Source of the DNA: Armatimonadota bacterium
GTDB taxonomy: Bacteria > Armatimonadota > Zipacnadia > Zipacnadales > VGFC01
Length of the DNA stretch: 33,319 nucleotides
Direction: 5' to 3'
Assembly: GCA_016869045.1 (NCBI GenBank)
Contig: VGFC01000030.1
Location: forward strand, 1-33,319
A model generated the notes under the pieces. The model saw nothing but the letters and a program-made list of their open reading frames with translations. It searched no databases and was not told the DNA's origin. Numbering within the stretch: the stretch's first letter is position 1; every line of letters begins with the position of its first letter. Positions 8,662 through 18,302 of the stretch are shown here, one piece after another. The translations under genes were made by a program, and so were the position numbers.

Positions 8662-10194
8662 ATGGCACCCAGCACCGAGATCATCGCCAACATCGAGGAA
8701 CTGCTCGCCGTGCTGCCGACGGGTCTGCGGCTGCAACTGAAGCAGCACGAGCTACTGGACGACCTCCTGGAGGTCGTCATCGATCTCGGCCGTCCCATCG
8801 AGGCGCGCTTCCCGGACACCTTCGAGATCATCGGCGACGCGCCCGGAACGCAAGAGGATCTCGACCTCGTCGTCAGCCGCATCGGCGAGTTCGGCGACGA
8901 CAACCGCGCGGGCATCGAGCGGACGCTGCACCGCATCTCAGCGATCCGCAACCGCACCGGCCGGGTCATCGGGCTGACGCTGCGCATCGGGCGAGCGGTC
9001 TACGGCACCATTGACATCATCCGCGACATCGTGGAGTCGGGGAGCAGCATCCTGCTGCTCGGACGGCCGGGCGTCGGCAAGACCACGATGCTGCGCGAGG
9101 TCGCGCGCGTCCTGGCGGACGACCTCACGCGGCGGGTCATCGTGGTTGATACGAGCAACGAGATCGCGGGAGACGGCGACATCCCGCACCCCGCCATCGG
9201 CCGCGCGCGCCGGATGCAGGTGCGCACTCCCAGCCTCCAGCATGCGGTGATGATCGAGGCGGTCGAGAACCACATGCCCGAGGTCATCGTCATCGACGAG
9301 ATCGGCACGCAGGAGGACGCCTTCGCCGCCCGCACCATCGCCGAGCGCGGCGTGCAGCTCATCGGGACCGCCCACGGCAACAACCTCGACAACCTGCTGT
9401 CCAACCCAACTCTCTGCGATCTCATCGGCGGCATCCAGGCCGTCACTCTCAGCGACGAGGAAGCGGCCCGCCGCGGCACCCAGAAGACCGTCCTGGAGCG
9501 CAAGGCCCCGCCAACCTTCGACGTCCTGATCGAGATTCTGGACCTCGACCGTCTCGCGATCCACGGCGACGTCGCCCGCACGGTAGACCGCCGACTGCTC
9601 GGGGACGAGCTGCGCCCCGAGATTCGCCGCCGCGCCACCAACGGCACCATCCACGTCGAGCAGGCCGCCGCCGAGCCTCCGCCAGAGCTCGAGGCCCACG
9701 GCCCGCTGGCGGGGCTCTTCTCCATCGTGTCGGACACCTCCCGGGCAAGCAAGCTGCTCGTCCTGGGCCTCAGCCGCAGCAAGGTCGAGAAGGCGCTCCG
9801 CGAGCTGCGCCTCCCCTGCGTCATCACCGAGCGCCCCAAGGACGCCGACCTCGTCATCGCCCTCAAGGCCACTCGCCGCCGCACCAAGGGCGGCCCCGAG
9901 GAGCCACCCACACCCCCCACTGCGCGGCTCGTCGAGGTCCGCAGCAACACCTACGGCCAGATCTACGAGGGCCTCCGCGAAGCCTTCGACGTCGGCATGA
10001 CCGCGCGCGAGGAGTTCGCGATGCAGGAGGCCGAGCAGGCCCTCAAGCGCGTCATCCAGGGCCATCAACCCGTCGAGCTGACCCCCCAGAACGCCTACAT
10101 CCGCCGCCTGCAGCACGAGCTCGCCGCCAAGTACGACATCCGCTCCTACTCGGTCGGCCACGATCCGCGACGAAGGGTCCGCTTCGCTCCGTAA
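8662..10194 (+). CDS. AAA ATPase with C-terminal R3H domain (SpoIIIAA/Ycf45-like)
   Basis: A 510-residue cytoplasmic ATPase. Residues 1-115 form the N-terminal region typical of SpoIIIAA/Ycf45 proteins (PIEARF and [17 protein letters not shown]). Walker A is GRPGVGKTT at 134-142 and Walker B is VIVIDEIG at 208-215, with AHGNNLDNL as sensor-like segment. The last 60 residues contain an R3H nucleic-acid-binding motif ([19 protein letters not shown]), where the Arg-x3-His pair binds single-stranded nucleic acid. Homologues occur in cyanobacteria, plastids, Firmicutes and related phyla; the cellular role is poorly known. A weak GGAATAGGG precedes the ATG, and the perfect promoter at 8493-8521 drives it. 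The neighbouring toxin-antitoxin pair has its own promoter and is probably separate. Confidence 0.9.
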
Positions 10195-10300
10195 CGGCAG
10201 CCGCAGTGACGCGGCCACGTGTGAGGGCAGGCACCGGGCAGTGCGCGGAAGGGACCGCGGCCCCCGAGGCTGAACACGCCCGGTGGAGAGGTGATGCACG

Positions 10301-12439
10301 ATGTTCCCCACGACGGCAACGGCGGCCCTGCTCCTTGCCGGTTCCGCGCTCGCCCAGACACCCGCGACCGGCCCGGACCTGACGCTCGAACAACTGCGGA
10401 CCGCGCGGCGAGAGCTGGCCCATCGCCCGCGCCGGATCATCGCGAACAACGACGGCTGCGACGCCCTCTACTTCCCTCGCGACACCGAGGTAACGGTCGC
10501 CAACTTCCTGGCCGAGCGCACGACGGCCCTCGCCGGCTCGCAGGTGGACACCATCGCCTATTGCACGATCAGCTCCGGGTTCAGCTACTTCACCCACAAC
10601 ACGCGCGTCGGCACGGTTCTCACGCGCCAGCCCGCCGACTACGGCCTGCTCCCCAACACGCGGAATGTCACCCAGGACCTGATCGACCTGGGCTCGGATG
10701 CGTTGCAGAGCGTGGTCGGGTTCGGCAGGGAACAGAGGCTTGAGGTCTTCTGGTCGATGCGGATGAACGACACGCACGACGTGGAGCATCGGCCCGAGAA
10801 GCCCTACATGCTCTTCCCGCCGCTCAAGGTCGAGCATCCCGAGTGGCTCGTGGGTGACTACGTCAAGCGCACGCCGCAGGGCCGCTGGAGTTCGGTGGAC
10901 TACGCGCGCCCTGAGATCCGCGACCTCGCGTTCCGGTACATCGAGGAGATCTGCCGCAACTACGACGTGGACGGCGTGGAACTCGACTTCTTCCGGCACC
11001 TGTGCTTCTTCCGCAGCGTCGCGAACGGCGGCAAAGCCAGCCAGGAGGAGCGGGACATGATGACCGACCTCCTCCGGCGCGTGCGGCAGATGACCGAGGA
11101 GGTCGGCCTGCAGCGCAAGCGGCCCGTGTTGGTCGCCGTGCGCGTGCCAGACTCGGTCGAGTTCGACCGCGACATGGGCCTGGACATCGAGCGGTGGCTG
11201 GCCGAGGACCTCGTGGACCTCCTGATCACGACCTGCTACTTCCGGCTCAACCCGTGGGAGTACAGCGTCGAACTCGGGCATCGGTACAGCGTTCCCGTGT
11301 ACCCCTGTCTGAGCGACTCGCGAGTGACGGGCGAGAGTCGCTTCCGACGGGCCTCCATTGAGAGCTACCGCGGCCGAGCCATGAACGCGTGGGTGGCCGG
11401 GGCGGATGGCATCCACCTCTTCAACCTCTTCAACCCGAAGTCGCCCGTGTTTCGGGAAGCTGGCGATCCCACCGTCCTGGCGGGTCTGAACAAGCTCTAC
11501 TTCGCGACGGTGAGAGACGGCAGCGCGGACTCCTGGCTGGCGGGCGGAGAGGCGTACCGCAACGTGCCACTCCTGACGCCCTCCCACCCCGCGAGCATCG
11601 CCCCCGACTCGCCGCTTGAGATCGAGCTACCGGTCGGCGAGGACCTGGAGGGAGCGCGACAGGCGGGCCGGCTTCCCGTCGTGACGCTGCACTTGGAGAT
11701 GCCAGCGGTGACTCGGCCCGAGCAACTGCGCGTCACGCTCAACAGTCAGGCGCTGGCCGGCGGCAGCGTGGCGAACGGGTGGGTTGACCTTCCCGTGCCC
11801 CTCGAGCACGTGAAGCGCGGCGCGAACCGGGTGCGGGTCGAACTCGACCCGGCGAACCTCCCGCCGCCGACCGAGTGGACTCTCACCTACGAGGCCACCG
11901 CCAAGCCCGCCGCGCCCTGGTTCCGCGACCCGGGCTCCGAGCGCACCGAGGAGAAGCTGGCCGATGGCGCGCTGTTCATCGCCGACCGGGGCACCGTCTC
12001 CGGGGACTACCACTACTACCGCTACCCCTGGGGCGCGGGGCCGAACGAGCCCCTGACCATCGAAGCGCGCGTGAAGGTGGTCTCGGGCTCGAGCTTCATC
12101 ATCTTCAGCAACGGCGTCGCCACCGAGCGCCTGGGGCTCTGGCCCGATCACCTCGACCTGTGGACCGACAACTCCATCCGCTACAACATGGACACCACGG
12201 ACGGCTTCCATGTCTACCGCATCGAGACCCGGGGCGAGCACCTGAGGGTCTACGTGGATGGGGAGCTTCGCATCGAGGCCAAGGGCCAGTTCAAGGCCCG
12301 GGGCGCCCGCGCCGACAACCAGCTTGCCTTCGGCACCGCCAACAGTACGATGGTTGGCGAGGCCTACTGGGCCGGAATCCGGGCGCATGTCGCAGGCCAG
12401 AGCTGCCGCGACATGGTGGTCAGCGTGACGTACCCGTAG
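10301..12439 (+). CDS. Secreted TIM-barrel glycoside-hydrolase-like protein with C-terminal beta-sandwich
   Basis: A 712-residue exported protein. The signal peptide MFPTTATAALLLAGSALAQ is cleaved after an AxA-type site. Residues 40-370 read as a GHL10/DUF4015-like hydrolase barrel: RIIANNDGCD, LEVFWSMRMNDTHD, and DVDGVELDFFRH near residue 225, where the Glu/Asp pair at a strand end is the likely catalytic site, followed by VLVAVRVPDS and WVAGADGIHLFNLF. A linker domain follows, then a concanavalin-like sandwich (LTIEARVKVVSGSSFIIF and LRVYVDGELRIEAKG) at 540-690. Such proteins are frequent in planctomycete- and Armatimonadota-type polysaccharide degraders. The substrate is unknown. GAGGTGAT at 10288-10295, 5 nt before the ATG, is a near-perfect ribosome binding site. 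The gene lies between the R3H ATPase and the defence operon and has no obvious functional tie to either. Confidence 0.75.
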   Translation: MFPTTATAALLLAGSALAQTPATGPDLTLEQLRTARRELAHRPRRIIANNDGCDALYFPRDTEVTVANFLAERTTALAGSQVDTIAYCTISSGFSYFTHNTRVGTVLTRQPADYGLLPNTRNVTQDLIDLGSDALQSVVGFGREQRLEVFWSMRMNDTHDVEHRPEKPYMLFPPLKVEHPEWLVGDYVKRTPQGRWSSVDYARPEIRDLAFRYIEEICRNYDVDGVELDFFRHLCFFRSVANGGKASQEERDMMTDLLRRVRQMTEEVGLQRKRPVLVAVRVPDSVEFDRDMGLDIERWLAEDLVDLLITTCYFRLNPWEYSVELGHRYSVPVYPCLSDSRVTGESRFRRASIESYRGRAMNAWVAGADGIHLFNLFNPKSPVFREAGDPTVLAGLNKLYFATVRDGSADSWLAGGEAYRNVPLLTPSHPASIAPDSPLEIELPVGEDLEGARQAGRLPVVTLHLEMPAVTRPEQLRVTLNSQALAGGSVANGWVDLPVPLEHVKRGANRVRVELDPANLPPPTEWTLTYEATAKPAAPWFRDPGSERTEEKLADGALFIADRGTVSGDYHYYRYPWGAGPNEPLTIEARVKVVSGSSFIIFSNGVATERLGLWPDHLDLWTDNSIRYNMDTTDGFHVYRIETRGEHLRVYVDGELRIEAKGQFKARGARADNQLAFGTANSTMVGEAYWAGIRAHVAGQSCRDMVVSVTYP

Positions 12440-12498
12440 GCGCGTCTGCCCGTCGCGTGCCTGGCGTGCCGCAGGACCGGGCCCGCCTCGTGACGAAC

Positions 12499-12525
12499 CT
12501 CGTAGGTCGAAGCGCCAGCTTCGAC
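12499..12525. repeat. Hairpin repeat copy 1 (CTCGTAGGTCG...GCCA...CGAC family)
   Basis: GTCGAAGC (12506-12513) pairs with GCTTCGAC (12518-12525) around the loop GCCA, preceded by CTCGTAG. A second copy at 32928-32954 has the same 5-prime flank and the same loop but a different, still complementary, stem centre. It lies immediately upstream of the ptuA-like gene. It looks like a dispersed palindromic repeat unit rather than a gene-specific operator. Confidence 0.55.
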
Positions 12526-12553
12526 GCCGTCGCCCGGGGTAGGAGGGTCCGCC

Positions 12554-13873
12554 ATGAGCGACACCACCAACGACACCTTCCGCATCGACCGCCTCACCCT
12601 CAAGAACTTCCGCTGCTTCGAAGAGAAGACCATCGACTTCTCACCCCGGTTCAATGTGCTGATCGGGGGCAATGCCAAGGGGAAAACGGCCGTGCTGGAT
12701 GCGCTGGCGGCCGGATGCGGAGCGGTGGTCAGTGGCCTTAGGGGTAACTTCACAGCGCCGAAGTGCTTCACGGAGGCCGACGTGCGCGTTCTGACCTTCC
12801 CTGAGGGGAATGTAGAGAGGCAGCTCCCATCGGACGTAACCTGGGCGATCTCCCTCTCGACTGAAGAGCACCACCTCTCCCTGACACAGGGGAGCAGTCA
12901 AGGGTCGTTCACCGCGCAGTCGATACAGCGACCGCTGGCGGAGATTGCGGCCCGTGTAGCCGCGGGTGATGCAGTGCAGCTGCCGGTGGCGGCGTACTAT
13001 CCTGCCGAGCGAAAGGGGTCTCACCCACTAGTAGAGCCCGGGGACCTTCTGGAGCCTGGCCCGCGGGTCGATGGTTACCAGAGTTGCATGCGCGCCACGC
13101 TGGACGCAGGCCAGTTCGTGGTGTGGTTCAAGACGATGGAGTTGGACAGCTTCCAGAGGGGCACGACAAGCCCCGGGCTCGTCGGGGTCCGAGAGGCTGT
13201 ACGGTCAGCCGTGGCCGACTGCACAGACGTACGCTTCCTGGGGGCACGGAACGAGGTAGTGGTGACGCTCCGAACCGGGGAGCGACTGCCGTTCAACGTC
13301 CTGAGCCATGGGATGAGGGGCATGCTCGCGATGGTCGGCGACATGGCGTGGCGCGGCTTCGTGTTGAACCCTCACCTCGGCGCCGACGCCGCCCGTGAGA
13401 CCCCCGGCGTGGTCCTCATCGACGAGATCGACCTGCACCTACACCCCTCCTGGCAGCGGCATGTGGTTGACGACCTGAAGCGCGCGTTCCCGAAGGTGCA
13501 GTTCATCGTGACGACCCACTCGCCGTTCATCATCCAGTCGCTGGAGCCGGGGGAACTCATCAAGCTGGACGCCGAGGGGCCCGAAGCGCACGTCGACCCA
13601 GAGGACTATGTCGACCGGAGTATTGAGGAGGTCGCCGAACTCGTTCAGGATGTTGACGACGCGCCAATGAGTCTGCGGCGCAAGCGCATGTACGAGGTCG
13701 CCGAGGAGTACTACTGTCTGCTGCAGCAGGGCAAGGACGCGAGTGACGAGGAGAAGACCCGTCTGAAGGAGGAACTCGACAGGCTGGAGGAGCCCTACAG
13801 CGACAACGTCGCCTATCGCGCCTTCCTCCGCATAGAGCGCATCGCCGCCGGTATGGGGGATGGCGAGCAATGA
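12554..13873 (+). CDS. Septu-like defence ATPase (PtuA-like, OLD/RecF-type AAA)
   Basis: A 439-residue ATPase of the SMC/RecF/OLD type. The N-terminus (IDRLTLKNFRCFEEKTIDF) is the standard opening of such proteins. Walker A is GGNAKGKT at 38-45, the ABC-signature region is LSHGMRGMLAMVGDMA (250-265), Walker B is VVLIDEIDLHLHP (286-298), and TTHSPF (320-325) is the switch His. The tail has a short charged helix. Its partner is the HNH nuclease that overlaps it by ATGA, the gene pair that defines Septu anti-phage systems (PtuA plus PtuB). In those systems the ATPase and nuclease form a complex that cleaves DNA upon phage infection. No reverse transcriptase is adjacent, so a retron-associated form (Ec78 type) is not supported. 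GGAGG at 12542-12546 precedes the ATG. Confidence 0.87.
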   Translation: MSDTTNDTFRIDRLTLKNFRCFEEKTIDFSPRFNVLIGGNAKGKTAVLDALAAGCGAVVSGLRGNFTAPKCFTEADVRVLTFPEGNVERQLPSDVTWAISLSTEEHHLSLTQGSSQGSFTAQSIQRPLAEIAARVAAGDAVQLPVAAYYPAERKGSHPLVEPGDLLEPGPRVDGYQSCMRATLDAGQFVVWFKTMELDSFQRGTTSPGLVGVREAVRSAVADCTDVRFLGARNEVVVTLRTGERLPFNVLSHGMRGMLAMVGDMAWRGFVLNPHLGADAARETPGVVLIDEIDLHLHPSWQRHVVDDLKRAFPKVQFIVTTHSPFIIQSLEPGELIKLDAEGPEAHVDPEDYVDRSIEEVAELVQDVDDAPMSLRRKRMYEVAEEYYCLLQQGKDASDEEKTRLKEELDRLEEPYSDNVAYRAFLRIERIAAGMGDGEQ

Positions 13874-14535
13874 GGCCCGTGGACCGCCGAGAGCCTCCCG
13901 GGAGCGGAGGCCCGCAGACGCCGGACGAGGCGCGCGACGCCCTCCTCGCACAACTCGGTCCGTACTGCTGCTACTGCGAGCGGCCGATCGAGCACATCCC
14001 AGAGCTTGAGCACATCCGCCCCAAGAGCCTGTACCCGGACCTCGCCTTGGCATGGGGCAACCTGTTGCTCAGCTGCAAGAACTGCAACGCGACCAAGGGT
14101 CATCGCGACATTGCTCTTGGGGAGTACTACTGGCCCGACCGCGACAACACACTCCGCGCATTCGCCTACTTCGAGGAGGGCTGGATCGCGCCGCACGAGG
14201 ACCTAAGGCCTGACCAGGTTGCGCGAGCGTGCCGCACCATCAGCCTCACAGGCCTGAACCGCGTGTCCACGCCCAAGGACCGCCGGACCCGGCAGCGGGC
14301 ATGGGCGTGGGAGGTCGCCTCGCAGTCGCTGGAACGCCTCTGCGCCTGTGGTTCGGCACACGTCCGGGCGCAGATCATCGAGACGGCTCTGGCCGTCGGC
14401 TTCTTCTCCGTCTGGATGACGGTCTTCGTCGATCACCCGGACATGCGGACCGCCTTCGTGGGGGCCTTCCCAGCGGCCCCCGACTGCTTCGACGCCGACG
14501 CCAACCCGATCCCTCGCCCGGGTGGAGACCTGTGA
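13870..14535 (+). CDS. Septu-like HNH endonuclease (PtuB-like)
   Basis: A 221-residue HNH nuclease. The zinc/HNH core sits near the N-terminus: CCYCERP (Cys33 and Cys36), LEHIRPKS (His48), WGNLLLSCKNCNATKG (Asn64, Cys69, Cys72) and His78. Two CxxC pairs hold zinc, and His48 is the probable catalytic base. This layout matches the TIGR02646-type nucleases that act as PtuB in Septu systems and in retron Ec78. The C-terminal half (residues 95-221) is helical and of unknown detail, probably the ATPase-binding part. The ATG overlaps the PtuA-like stop by 4 nt (ATGA). Its own TGA overlaps the tmk ATG (TGATG at 14533-14537), so nuclease and tmk share a transcript. All metal ligands are present, so it should be active. 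Confidence 0.87.
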   Translation: MRPVDRREPPGSGGPQTPDEARDALLAQLGPYCCYCERPIEHIPELEHIRPKSLYPDLALAWGNLLLSCKNCNATKGHRDIALGEYYWPDRDNTLRAFAYFEEGWIAPHEDLRPDQVARACRTISLTGLNRVSTPKDRRTRQRAWAWEVASQSLERLCACGSAHVRAQIIETALAVGFFSVWMTVFVDHPDMRTAFVGAFPAAPDCFDADANPIPRPGGDL

Positions 14536-15164
14536 TGACCTCGGCGACATCCGGCCATCTCATCGTCATCGAGGGCCCCGAGGGCGCGGGGAAGTCCACG
14601 CAGGTGCGGCGGTTGGGGGAGGCGCTGAGGGCGCGAGGGCATCAGGTGGTGCTGACGTACGAGCCGGGGGGGACGCCGATGGCGGAGGCGATTCGGCGGA
14701 TCTTCCTGAGCGGGGAGCATGAGGCGATCACGCCGCTGACGGAGCTGTTCCTGATCTGCGCGTCGAGGGCGCAGCACGTGGCGGAGGTGATCCGGCCCGC
14801 GCTGGCGGCGGGGAAGGTGGTGCTGTGTGACCGGTTCAGCCCCTCGACGATTGTGTATCAGGGGTACGCGGGCGGGCTGCCGCTGGAGACGGTGCGGGCC
14901 GTGGACGAGGCGGCAAGGGAGGGGTTGGCGCCGGACCTGACCATCGTCCTCGACTTGCCGGCAGAGGTTGGCCTGCGGCGCAATCGCGACGAGGCCGATG
15001 CAGACAGGATGGAGGGCAAGGGGCTTGCGTTCCATCAGCGGGTGCGGGAGGGTTACCTGAGGTACGCGGAGGCGGCGCGTGAGGCGTGTGTGGTGGTCTC
15101 GGGGGAGGCCAGTGCGGACGACGTGGCACGCGAGGTGCTGGCGGCGGTGCTGCGGTGCGTCTAG
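14535..15164 (+). CDS. tmk: Thymidylate kinase
   Basis: A 209-residue dTMP kinase of normal length; it phosphorylates dTMP to dTDP for DNA synthesis in the cytoplasm. The P-loop is EGPEGAGKST, the acceptor site reads TYEPGGTPMAEAIR, and CDRFSPSTIVYQGYAGG is the conserved DR-x-x-x-S region that binds the nucleotide. LIVLDLPAEVGLRR-type strand residues and DRMEGKGLAFHQRVREGY (the lid and following helix) complete the family pattern. The frame is open about 100 codons upstream inside ptuB, but GGAG at 14524-14527 and the TGATG overlap show that translation starts at 14535. The coupling means that expression depends at least partly on read-through from the defence genes unless an internal promoter exists; none is obvious. 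Confidence 0.95.
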   Translation: MTSATSGHLIVIEGPEGAGKSTQVRRLGEALRARGHQVVLTYEPGGTPMAEAIRRIFLSGEHEAITPLTELFLICASRAQHVAEVIRPALAAGKVVLCDRFSPSTIVYQGYAGGLPLETVRAVDEAAREGLAPDLTIVLDLPAEVGLRRNRDEADADRMEGKGLAFHQRVREGYLRYAEAAREACVVVSGEASADDVAREVLAAVLRCV

Positions 15165-15177
15165 CGAACGGCAGCAA

Positions 15178-15207
15178 GGGACAGTCCCGGACGTCGGGAC
15201 AGTCCCG
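15178..15207. repeat. Two tandem copies of the palindrome GGGACAGTCCC
   Basis: GGGACAGTCCC occurs at 15178-15188 and again at 15196-15206, 18 nt apart; the second copy extends to a 13-bp palindrome (CGGGACAGTCCCG, 15195-15207). The pair fills the 61-nt gap between tmk and holB and ends 9 nt before the holB ribosome binding site. It could be a dimeric-repressor operator, a REP-like sequence, or a hairpin that tunes holB translation. Confidence 0.5.
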
Positions 15208-15225
15208 AACGGCACGGAGTAGCGG

Positions 15226-16374
15226 ATGTCCTTCGGTGGGATTGCCGGGCATGAGACGGCGAAGCAGGTGCTGACGCGAGCGATCCTCACCGATCGCGTG
15301 TCTCACGCGTACCTGTTCGAGGGGCCGGCGCATGTCGGCAAGACGCTGACGGCGGTGGCGTTCGCGAAGGCGCTGATGTGCGCGGAGCCGCCGGAGCCGG
15401 CCGAGTCGTGCAATGCGTGCGCGATCTGCCGCGCCGTCGGGCGGGGCAATCACCCGGACTTCCTGCTGCTCTTTCCGACCTCGCGTCTAGAGACCACGGA
15501 CGAGGAGGGGCAGAAGGCGGTCGCGGAGATCGAGGGCTCGCTGATCCGCCGCGAGGCGATCGGGCAGCTCATCGACCGTGCGTACGGGCGGGCGGTCTCG
15601 GCGCGGCGGAAGGTGCTCATCGTGTCCGATGCTCAGGCGATGAATGAGGAGGCGGCCAACCACCTGCTGAAGACGCTGGAGGAGCCGCCCGGGCGGACCA
15701 CGATCATCCTCACGGCCACCAGCGCCGACAGCCTCCTGCCGACCATCGTCTCCCGCTCGCAGCTCGTGCGCTTCGGACCGGTGCCGCTGGCCGAGACCCA
15801 GGCCGCGATGACCCGCGCGTTCCCGGGCCTCGACTCGGCGCTCGTGCGGTCCGTGGCGGCGCTCTCGGGCGGGCGGCCGGGCTGGGCGCGGCGGCTGCTG
15901 GAGCACCCCGACACGCTGGCGATTCGCCGCCGATTGCTCGACCGCGTGGCCCGCCTACCTGACCAGCCGCCGCTAGTCTGCATGAGGGCGGCGGAGATTC
16001 TGATCGACGATGCCGAGGCGTGGTGGCTGGCCACGAGCGAGGGCCACACGGCGCGCGAGCTGCTGAAGAGGAACCGCGACCGCGTCCTGCGTACGCAGGT
16101 CGGCGAGCTGTTGGACCTCCTTGTCACGTGGTTCCGCGACCTGTCGATTGCGGGGGAGGAGGGCGCGGAGGGGCTGCTGATCAACGCGGACCGGATCGCC
16201 GAGCTGAAGCGGGCGGCTGGGCGTGCGCCCAATTGCGCGGCGGCGGGAGCGGCGGTGAGTCAGGCCAAGGAGGCGCTGCGCGGCAATGCGAACCTGCGCC
16301 TGACGGTTGAGGTGATGCTCATCCGCGTTCGCCGCGCGCTCACCGCGGCCGTGCCGGGGCCTGCATTCCCATGA
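15226..16374 (+). CDS. holB: DNA polymerase III subunit delta-prime
   Basis: A 382-residue clamp-loader subunit that opens and places the sliding clamp with tau/gamma and delta. The N-terminus (FGGIAGHETAKQVLTRAI, SHAYLFEGP) is typical, the P-loop-like segment is GPAHVGKT (33-40), and the zinc module uses Cys52, 62, 65 and 68. Other family segments are RKVLIVSDAQAMNEEAANHLLKTLEEPP (the Walker B region, without ATPase-active acidic pair) and TIVSRSQLVRF, where most homologues have SRC rather than SRS. The C-terminal 170 residues form the collar. GGAG at 15216-15219, 6 nt before the ATG, marks the start. The gene follows tmk, a common bacterial pairing, and its stop overlaps the next ATG (ATGA at 16371-16374). 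Confidence 0.92.
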   Translation: MSFGGIAGHETAKQVLTRAILTDRVSHAYLFEGPAHVGKTLTAVAFAKALMCAEPPEPAESCNACAICRAVGRGNHPDFLLLFPTSRLETTDEEGQKAVAEIEGSLIRREAIGQLIDRAYGRAVSARRKVLIVSDAQAMNEEAANHLLKTLEEPPGRTTIILTATSADSLLPTIVSRSQLVRFGPVPLAETQAAMTRAFPGLDSALVRSVAALSGGRPGWARRLLEHPDTLAIRRRLLDRVARLPDQPPLVCMRAAEILIDDAEAWWLATSEGHTARELLKRNRDRVLRTQVGELLDLLVTWFRDLSIAGEEGAEGLLINADRIAELKRAAGRAPNCAAAGAAVSQAKEALRGNANLRLTVEVMLIRVRRALTAAVPGPAFP

Positions 16375-18302
16375 CCTCGCGGGCGCTGATCATCGGGATC
16401 GTGGCCGTGCTGCTGCTCGGCATCGGCACGCCCTACAGCGACTTGGTGATGCGCGGCACGTGGGTGGGGCTGACGGCCTTCCCGATCAGCAGCCTGTTCG
16501 TGCTGCTCGTGCTCGTGGTGGCGGCCAATGCGGTGCTACGAAGGGTGGGCCGAGCGCTCGCGCCGGGTGAGCTGCTGTTTGTCTACGCGATGGTGCTGGT
16601 GGCGGCGGGGATTCCGTCCTTCGGGCTGACCGCGCTCCTGATCCCCTACCTCGCCGGCCCCTTCTACTTCGCCAGCCCCGAGAACCGCTACGAGCAGATT
16701 CTACACCCACACATCCCGAGCTGGTTCCACCCGAAGAGCGAGTACGCCATCACCGCGCTCTACGAAGGCCTGCGCGGATCGCAGAGCATCCCCTGGGGCG
16801 AGTGGATCACGCCCTTGGCGGCCTGGTCGATCCTGGTACTGGCGGTGTACGCGGTCTTCTTCTGCCTGAGCACGCTGCTGCGCCGGCGCTGGGTGGATGA
16901 CGAGAAGCTCGTCTTCCCGCTTGTGCAGTTGCCCGTTGAGATGACCCAGGGACAGCCGGGCGACCGCCGCTTGGTCGCGCCGTTCTTCCGCAACCCGGTC
17001 ATGTGGTCCTTCTTCGCGGTGCCCTTTCTCGTTCACACGGTCAACGGGCTGCACTTCTACTACCCGAGCGTGCCCACCATCAACGTGCACCTCATCTCGC
17101 TCGACGGATACCTGCAAGGCCGCCCGTGGAACGCAGCGTCCCCCTTCTGGCTGCGGTTCCTGTTCAGCATCATCGGGCTCGCGTACTTGCTGCCCCAGGA
17201 CCTGTCGTTCAGCCTGTGGTTCTTCTACTTCCTCTTCCTGGCTCAGCAAGTCATCGTGTCGGCCTTCGGGTACAACCCGGCGTCCGTGCAGGCCTACCCG
17301 GTGCGGCAGTTTGTCGCCCACCAGATGATCGCGGGCATCATCATCTACTCGGCCTATCACCTCTGGGCCGGGCGCTCGCGGTTCATCGAGGCCTGGCGGC
17401 GGGCGTGGGCACAGGACCCGCGGGTCGATGATTCGCGCGAGCCCCTCTCGTTCCGGGCGGCGCTCATCGGCCTGGCGGTCGGGCTGGTGGTGATCTGCGT
17501 GTGGGGCGGGGCGGCCGGGGCGTCGGTGATCGGCACGCTGGTGATCTTCGGGCTGTACTTCCTGGTGCACATCGTGGCGGTGAGGCTGGTCTGTGAGGGC
17601 GGAATGCTGTACGTGCAGCACCCCTACCGCCCGCTGAACATGATGCTTGCCGCGGTCGGCACTCGCGCTTTGGGGGCCGGCCGAGTCGCCACGCTGGCCC
17701 TCTTTGACCACCTCTTCATGCTCGACAACCGCAGCCCGCTGATGCCGGGGGTCATGCAGAGCTACAAGATGGCGGATGCGGCGGGGCTGAACCGGCGGCA
17801 GGTCACGGGGGGCATGGTCATCGCGGTCCTGCTGGCGATGGCGTCCTCGTATGTCTCATACCTGCGCCTGATGTACCGCTACGGCGGCGCGGCGATGAAC
17901 CCGTGGTTCACGACCTACTACACGAACAACCTCTACTGCAACTGGACCTCGCACCTGATCTCCAACGGACAGGACGCCAATCCACGCGAGTTCCTGACGA
18001 TGGCCGCCGGCGCCGGGACGATGTGGGGGATCCTCTTCATGCACCGCACGTTCCTCTGGTGGCCCTTCCACCCGATCGGCTATCTGATGGGCGCCTCCTG
18101 GCCCATGATCAACTTCTGGTTCCCCATCTTCGTGGGCTGGCTCGTGAAGTCGATCATCCTGCGCTACGGCGGCGCCAAGCTCTACCGCAAGCTCATCCCC
18201 GGCTCCCTGGGCCTGGTACTCGCCGAGTTCGTCAGCGCCGGCATCTGGGTACCGATCGATGCGTTGGCAGGCGTGAGGGGACACCAGATCTTCTCGTTCT
18301 GA
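16371..18302 (+). CDS. DUF6785/DUF6784-like polytopic membrane protein
   Basis: A 643-residue integral membrane protein with about 12-14 hydrophobic segments. The first covers residues 5-20 (LIIGIVAVLLLGIGTPY) and others include the stretches near 40-55, 75-95, 145-170 and 460-490. Conserved-looking signatures are ALAPGELLFVYAMVLVAAGIP, RRRWVDDEKLVFPLVQLP and YVQHPYRPLNMML; they match the large uncharacterised DUF6785 (N-terminal) and DUF6784 (C-terminal) family found in Planctomycetes, Armatimonadota and similar phyla, distantly OPT-transporter-like. Transport is a guess. The ATG overlaps the holB stop by 4 nt, so it is cotranslated with a replication gene, an odd association that may simply reflect compact operons. 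The next gene is 181 nt downstream. Confidence 0.78.
   Translation: MTSRALIIGIVAVLLLGIGTPYSDLVMRGTWVGLTAFPISSLFVLLVLVVAANAVLRRVGRALAPGELLFVYAMVLVAAGIPSFGLTALLIPYLAGPFYFASPENRYEQILHPHIPSWFHPKSEYAITALYEGLRGSQSIPWGEWITPLAAWSILVLAVYAVFFCLSTLLRRRWVDDEKLVFPLVQLPVEMTQGQPGDRRLVAPFFRNPVMWSFFAVPFLVHTVNGLHFYYPSVPTINVHLISLDGYLQGRPWNAASPFWLRFLFSIIGLAYLLPQDLSFSLWFFYFLFLAQQVIVSAFGYNPASVQAYPVRQFVAHQMIAGIIIYSAYHLWAGRSRFIEAWRRAWAQDPRVDDSREPLSFRAALIGLAVGLVVICVWGGAAGASVIGTLVIFGLYFLVHIVAVRLVCEGGMLYVQHPYRPLNMMLAAVGTRALGAGRVATLALFDHLFMLDNRSPLMPGVMQSYKMADAAGLNRRQVTGGMVIAVLLAMASSYVSYLRLMYRYGGAAMNPWFTTYYTNNLYCNWTSHLISNGQDANPREFLTMAAGAGTMWGILFMHRTFLWWPFHPIGYLMGASWPMINFWFPIFVGWLVKSIILRYGGAKLYRKLIPGSLGLVLAEFVSAGIWVPIDALAGVRGHQIFSF

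What the first reader, a model, noticed from the sequence alone, without database searches (positions are those of the whole stretch)
12554..14535. Septu-like two-gene defence operon (PtuA ATPase plus PtuB HNH nuclease)
The ATPase has Walker A GGNAKGKT, Walker B VVLIDEID and the TTHSPF switch. The nuclease has two CxxC zinc pairs and LEHIRPKS. The genes overlap by ATGA. Seen: motifs and order. Known: this pair is the Septu system. Inferred: anti-phage function in this lineage, without a retron reverse transcriptase.
Basis: partly seen in the sequence, partly recalled or inferred. Interest (0 to 1): 0.72.

Follow-up and report, generated by a model that had tools for sequence, protein, structure and literature searches.

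The report
Stand-alone Septu (PtuAB) defence operon
This is an ordinary two-gene Septu anti-phage operon (an ATPase plus a cutting enzyme) in an uncultured Armatimonadota bacterium, sitting without any retron in front of two DNA-replication genes; it adds a host lineage to a known system rather than a new kind of system.

Summary
The ORFs at 12554-13873 (439 aa) and 13870-14535 (221 aa) overlap by ATGA, and all the motifs named are present. Profiles, solved-structure sequences and AlphaFold/Foldseek all identify them as PtuA and PtuB: PADLOC PtuA1 E=2e-119 and PtuB1 E=1e-67; best structural match for PtuA is E. coli Septu 8eea, E=9e-27. NCBI's retron-Ec78-specific PtuA/PtuB cut-offs are not reached and TIGR02646 is missed by 0.05 bits. 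The contig has no reverse transcriptase and no Rfam RNA. The only retron found in this genome (another contig) is type II-A with its own NDT effector. The pair is therefore a stand-alone type I Septu. In the sister species ptuA-ptuB occupies the same place directly before tmk-holB, whereas in about half of the other checked relatives an R3H-ATPase gene directly precedes tmk, so ptuAB (plus a GHL10-like gene here) looks like an old insertion. Between the two species PtuA residues 48-248 (26% identity) and PtuB (42%) have diverged far more than the ATP-binding core (about 80%) and tmk (77%). Anti-phage activity and nuclease target (tRNA-Tyr or DNA in studied Septus) are inferred, not tested. New member of a known kind; modest interest.

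The parts
12554..13873 (+). ptuA: ABC/AAA_15-type ATPase, 439 aa
   Evidence: PADLOC PtuA1 E=2.3e-119; PDB 8ee4 PtuA E=5e-40; Foldseek 8eea_C E=9e-27
12665..12688 (+). Walker A GGNAKGKT (res. 38-45)
   Evidence: sequence
13301..13318 (+). ABC signature-like LSHGMR (res. 250-255)
   Evidence: L250, G253, R255 invariant
13409..13432 (+). Walker B VVLIDEID (res. 286-293)
13511..13528 (+). switch/H-loop TTHSPF (res. 320-325)
   Evidence: T320, H322, S323 invariant
13870..14535 (+). ptuB: HNH endonuclease, 221 aa; start overlaps ptuA stop (ATGA)
   Evidence: PADLOC PtuB1 E=1.1e-67; Pfam HNH PF01844; AlphaFold pLDDT 93.5, Foldseek best nine all PtuB
13966..13977 (+). first CxxC (C33-C36) of the HNH zinc site
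14005..14028 (+). LEHIRPKS with catalytic-type H48; N64 at 14059-14061 has the same spacing (16) as H75/N91 of Septu EcB88 PtuB
   Evidence: PMC13096335
14074..14085 (+). second CxxC (C69-C72)
14404..14427 (+). C-terminal FSVWMTVF motif shared by the Armatimonadota PtuB group, absent from the Gammaproteobacteria compared
14535..15164 (+). tmk (dTMP kinase), start overlaps ptuB stop (TGATG); context, probably co-transcribed, not a Septu part
   Evidence: Pfam PF02223, TIGR00041
15226..16374 (+). holB (DNA polymerase III delta'); context
   Evidence: Pfam PF13177
12502..12526 (.). hairpin repeat GTAGGTCGAAGCGCCAGCTTCGACG upstream of ptuA; dispersed genus repeat, also at the same place in the sister species
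   Evidence: 14 copies in this genome, 36 in sister, 0 in reversed control

Best explanation
A stand-alone type I Septu system. PtuA is an ABC-type ATPase that assembles into an oligomer and carries PtuB, an HNH nuclease with a structural zinc. After phage infection PtuA's nucleotide state or conformation changes and frees PtuB to cut a nucleic acid, either tRNA-Tyr in its variable loop or DNA, stopping phage production. Shown here: identity of both proteins, conserved catalytic residues, folds, operon arrangement, no retron. Inferred from studied Septus: assembly, trigger, target and phage protection.
For: PADLOC PtuA1/PtuB1 full-length matches; best solved relative of PtuA by sequence is E. 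coli Septu PtuA 8ee4 and by fold 8eea; PtuB model pLDDT 93.5 matches only PtuB chains significantly. Walker A/B and HNH residues needed for defence in Septu EcB88 (K43, D316; H75, N91; PMC13096335) have counterparts K44, D290, H48, N64. ptuA is followed by ptuB in 11 further complete loci plus one with a truncated ptuA at a contig edge, with no RT recognised by a motif screen. No RT on the contig, no Rfam RNA.
Against: No functional test. TIGR02646 just under cut-off and NCBI retron-type PtuA/PtuB equivalog cut-offs not met, as expected for a non-retron branch. Walker A has A41 in place of the usual G, and the sister's Walker B is DD, not DE, so ATP handling in this genus could differ.
Confidence: 0.93

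Rival explanations
1. The pair is the effector module of a type I-A retron whose RT and msr-msd are missed or lie elsewhere.
For: Retron I-A effectors are PtuA/PtuB homologues; PADLOC ATPase_I-A (1e-62) and HNH_I-A (1e-19) also match.
Against: Stand-alone models score far better; Ec78 PtuA/PtuB cut-offs missed widely; PtuA is 439 aa against 550 in retrons and lacks their about 55-residue N-terminal extension; no RT on the 33 kb contig; the genome's three RTs are two group II intron-like and one type II-A retron with its own NDT effector.
Confidence: 0.02
2. A decaying or repurposed Septu kept for another role, for example tied to tmk-holB expression in DNA replication.
For: Tight TGATG overlap with tmk and same placement in the sister species; sister PtuA has a changed Walker B.
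Against: Both genes intact with conserved catalytic residues; other phylum members carry the pair away from tmk, one locus beside type I restriction-like genes; fast divergence resembles defence genes.
Confidence: 0.04
3. Chance juxtaposition of an unrelated ABC ATPase and an unrelated HNH nuclease.
For: ATPase and HNH domains are each common (general knowledge); the Pfam hits alone would not separate this from Septu.
Against: Family-specific profiles for both partners and repeated adjacency across phyla.
Confidence: 0.01

Closest known systems
E. coli Septu PtuAB (PDB 8ee4, 8ee7, 8eea, 8sux)
   Same: Two-gene PtuA/PtuB, PtuA of similar length (465 against 439 aa), best fold match
   Different: About 24-28% identity; PtuB C-terminal third is divergent; host phylum
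Septu EcB88 (PMC13096335)
   Same: Stand-alone ptuA-ptuB; same catalytic residues and H-N spacing
   Different: Its target (tRNA-Tyr variable loop) is not known to apply here
Retron Ec78/Eco7 (type I-A) effectors PtuA/PtuB
   Same: Homologous ATPase and HNH proteins
   Different: No RT or msr-msd here; PtuA about 110 aa shorter; NCBI equivalog cut-offs not met
Armatimonadota PtuAB loci (L060-L064)
   Same: Same PADLOC PtuA1 PDLC00278 / PtuB1 PDLC00315 branch (scanned for L060), FSxWxTVF C-terminal motif
   Different: 35-40% identity and not located at tmk in the loci examined

Membership tests
Septu type I (PtuA1 + PtuB1) | PtuA ATPase profile match | tested here: met
   PDLC00278 E=2.3e-119, residues 9-433 of profile 1-433/436
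Septu type I (PtuA1 + PtuB1) | PtuB HNH profile match | tested here: met
   PDLC00315 E=1.1e-67, residues 1-215 of profile 1-220/227
Septu type I (PtuA1 + PtuB1) | Adjacent, same-strand ptuA then ptuB | tested here: met
   ATGA overlap
Septu type I (PtuA1 + PtuB1) | Walker A/B and HNH catalytic residues present | tested here: met
   K44, D290/E291, H48, N64; essential in EcB88 per PMC13096335
Septu type I (PtuA1 + PtuB1) | Fold of PtuA and PtuB | tested here: met
   Foldseek top hits 8eea_C E=9e-27 and nine PtuB chains
Septu type I (PtuA1 + PtuB1) | Protects cells against phage | not testable with these tools
   needs an experiment
TIGR02646 (HNH of retron systems) | Score at or above the cut-off of 52.15 bits | tested here: not met
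   52.1 bits, a miss by 0.05 bits
Type I-A retron (Ec78-like) | RT and msr-msd next to ptuAB | tested here: not met
   no RT on contig C30, no Rfam hit; msr-msd of unknown retrons could escape Rfam
Type I-A retron (Ec78-like) | NCBIfam Ec78 PtuA/PtuB equivalog cut-offs | tested here: not met
   214.5 against 500 and 49.7 against 150 bits

The most novel reading that the evidence does not exclude
In this genus Septu is locked into the tmk-holB operon while its sensing half is exchanged or diversifies fast: PtuA residues 48-248 and PtuB show codon identity at the chance level between sister species, while the ATP-binding core is as conserved as the housekeeping neighbours. This would make the locus a natural module-swap system for finding what decides Septu's trigger and target.
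Probability: 0.15. Interest if true: 0.45.

Novelty: new member of a known kind. Interest (0 to 1): 0.22.

Why it matters
It records an intact, retron-free Septu in a poorly studied phylum, placed at a conserved chromosomal site in two species. The pattern of a conserved ATP core with a divergent middle and nuclease points to the parts likely to set trigger and target specificity, which is still open because studied Septus cut different targets (tRNA-Tyr or DNA).

Tried and rejected
Retron I-A reading: rejected (no RT on the contig; the genome's only retron found is type II-A with an NDT effector). Upstream hairpin as a Septu-specific regulator or msr-msd: rejected, it is a dispersed genus repeat with 14 and 36 copies. 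Rfam scan at relaxed threshold gave one meaningless hit. Mobile-element origin: no close relatives on plasmids (PtuB best 30-40% over part of the protein), none of PtuB in phages. Viral-contig scan with the PtuB alignment could not be run (no conserved stretch). The main Septu structure paper (PMC12318543) is not held. The PtuB tree did not resolve whether window and sister PtuB are sisters.

Full report
Observation. The motifs listed are correct. A third overlap was not mentioned: ptuB ends at 14535 and tmk starts at the same base (TGATG), followed by holB at 15226.

Identity. PADLOC profiles give PtuA1 PDLC00278 at E=2.3e-119 and PtuB1 PDLC00315 at E=1.1e-67, each over nearly the whole protein. 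Pfam gives AAA_15/AAA_21 and HNH. By sequence, the best solved relative of PtuA is E. coli Septu PtuA 8ee4 (E=5e-40), ahead of the retron PtuAs; a PtuB profile finds retron PtuBs and Septu PtuB 8ee7. AlphaFold models (PtuB pLDDT 93.5; PtuA 81.9) match 8eea PtuA best (E=9e-27), and the nine significant PtuB matches are all PtuB chains.

Retron or not. NCBI's Ec78 PtuA and PtuB equivalog models match well below their cut-offs (214.5/500 and 49.7/150 bits) and TIGR02646 is missed by 0.05 bits. There is no RT on this 33 kb contig, no Rfam match in the window. The genome's three RT hits lie on other contigs: two resemble group II intron RTs from their sequence, and one is a type II-A retron RT (E=7e-107) with a neighbouring NDT_II-A effector (E=1e-59). 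So this Septu has no retron partner that could be found.

Relatives. Host: genome G000, whose same-genus relative G001 is an Armatimonadota MAG (K_DeepCast_150m_m2_147). Of 291 genomes in the phylum, 7 carry a PtuB of this branch at E<=1e-10. ptuA is directly followed by ptuB in the sister, in six further loci of the phylum and in four Gammaproteobacteria; a further phylum locus (L066) has ptuB behind a ptuA truncated at the contig edge. None has an ORF that reads as an RT in a motif screen of the flanks held. The phylum's PtuBs share a C-terminal FSxWxTVF...CFD region that the Gammaproteobacteria lack. Catalytic residues proven necessary in Septu EcB88 (K43, D316, H75, N91; PMC13096335) correspond to K44, D290, H48, N64.

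Place in the chromosome. In 13 of 25 other relatives with at least 1.4 kb of upstream sequence, an orthologue (49-63% identity) of the R3H/SpoIIIAA-like ATPase gene found here at 8662-10194 lies just upstream of tmk, and none of the 25 has ptuA or ptuB there. In the window a GHL10-like gene and ptuAB lie between the two. In the sister, ptuA-ptuB-tmk-holB has the same order, with the same repeat hairpin upstream of ptuA. PtuA of the two species are sisters (100/97). The simplest reading is one insertion before the two species split. ptuA GC is 64% against 71% for tmk and holB, in keeping with acquisition.

Uneven divergence. Between the two species, PtuA residues 1-47 and 249-345 are 83% and 80% identical, residues 48-248 only 26%, PtuB 42%, tmk 77%, holB 75%. 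Among identical amino acids, the same codon is used in 83/109 cases in the conserved parts, 24/50 in the middle and 48/87 in PtuB, where chance gives about 0.54. This hints at exchange with a divergent allele, but the middle is poorly aligned, numbers are small, and holB (0.60) is also low. The PtuB tree is unresolved. I treat it as a lead.

Mechanism. From published Septus: EcB88 needs both ATPase and HNH activity and cleaves tRNA-Tyr in the variable loop during infection (PMC13096335); the retron-Eco7 PtuAB depletes tRNA-Tyr, whereas E. coli ATCC 25922 Septu was reported to cut DNA (PMC11555353). The same ATPase-gated nuclease model is the best for this pair; target and trigger cannot be read from sequence. 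Oligomer assembly and zinc binding are carried over from the solved relatives, not shown here.

Verdict. This is an intact stand-alone type I Septu in Armatimonadota: a new member of a known kind.

Noticed in passing
window 12502-12526: Perfect hairpin repeat GTAGGTCGRAGC-GCTYCGACG, dispersed in this genome (14) and the sister (36), with tandem arrays (C218; sister C363), absent from three order-level relatives: a genus-specific REP-like family.
   Followed up: partly
L046 (VGFB01000521.1), sister PtuA: Sister PtuA has Walker B VVLIDDID (E to D) and LPSG in place of LSxG in the signature; its ATP hydrolysis may be altered.
   Followed up: no
L070:5377-7487: A second, divergent ATPase + HNH pair in the same genome matches PtuA1 PDLC00269 (1e-70) and PtuB1 PDLC00317 (6e-18); contig C149 (L071:6457-7788) holds another PtuA1-like ATPase (4e-134) near the contig end, with no partner examined.
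   Followed up: partly
L068:163-2146: Type II-A retron: NDT effector followed by RT_II-A, on contig C313 of the same genome.
   Followed up: partly
window 8662-16374: Conserved neighbourhood R3H-ATPase - tmk - holB in much of the order, opened here by a GHL10-like gene plus ptuAB.
   Followed up: yes
window 16371-18302: DUF6785/DUF6784 membrane protein of unknown function directly overlapping holB (ATGA-type), conserved in the sister.
   Followed up: no
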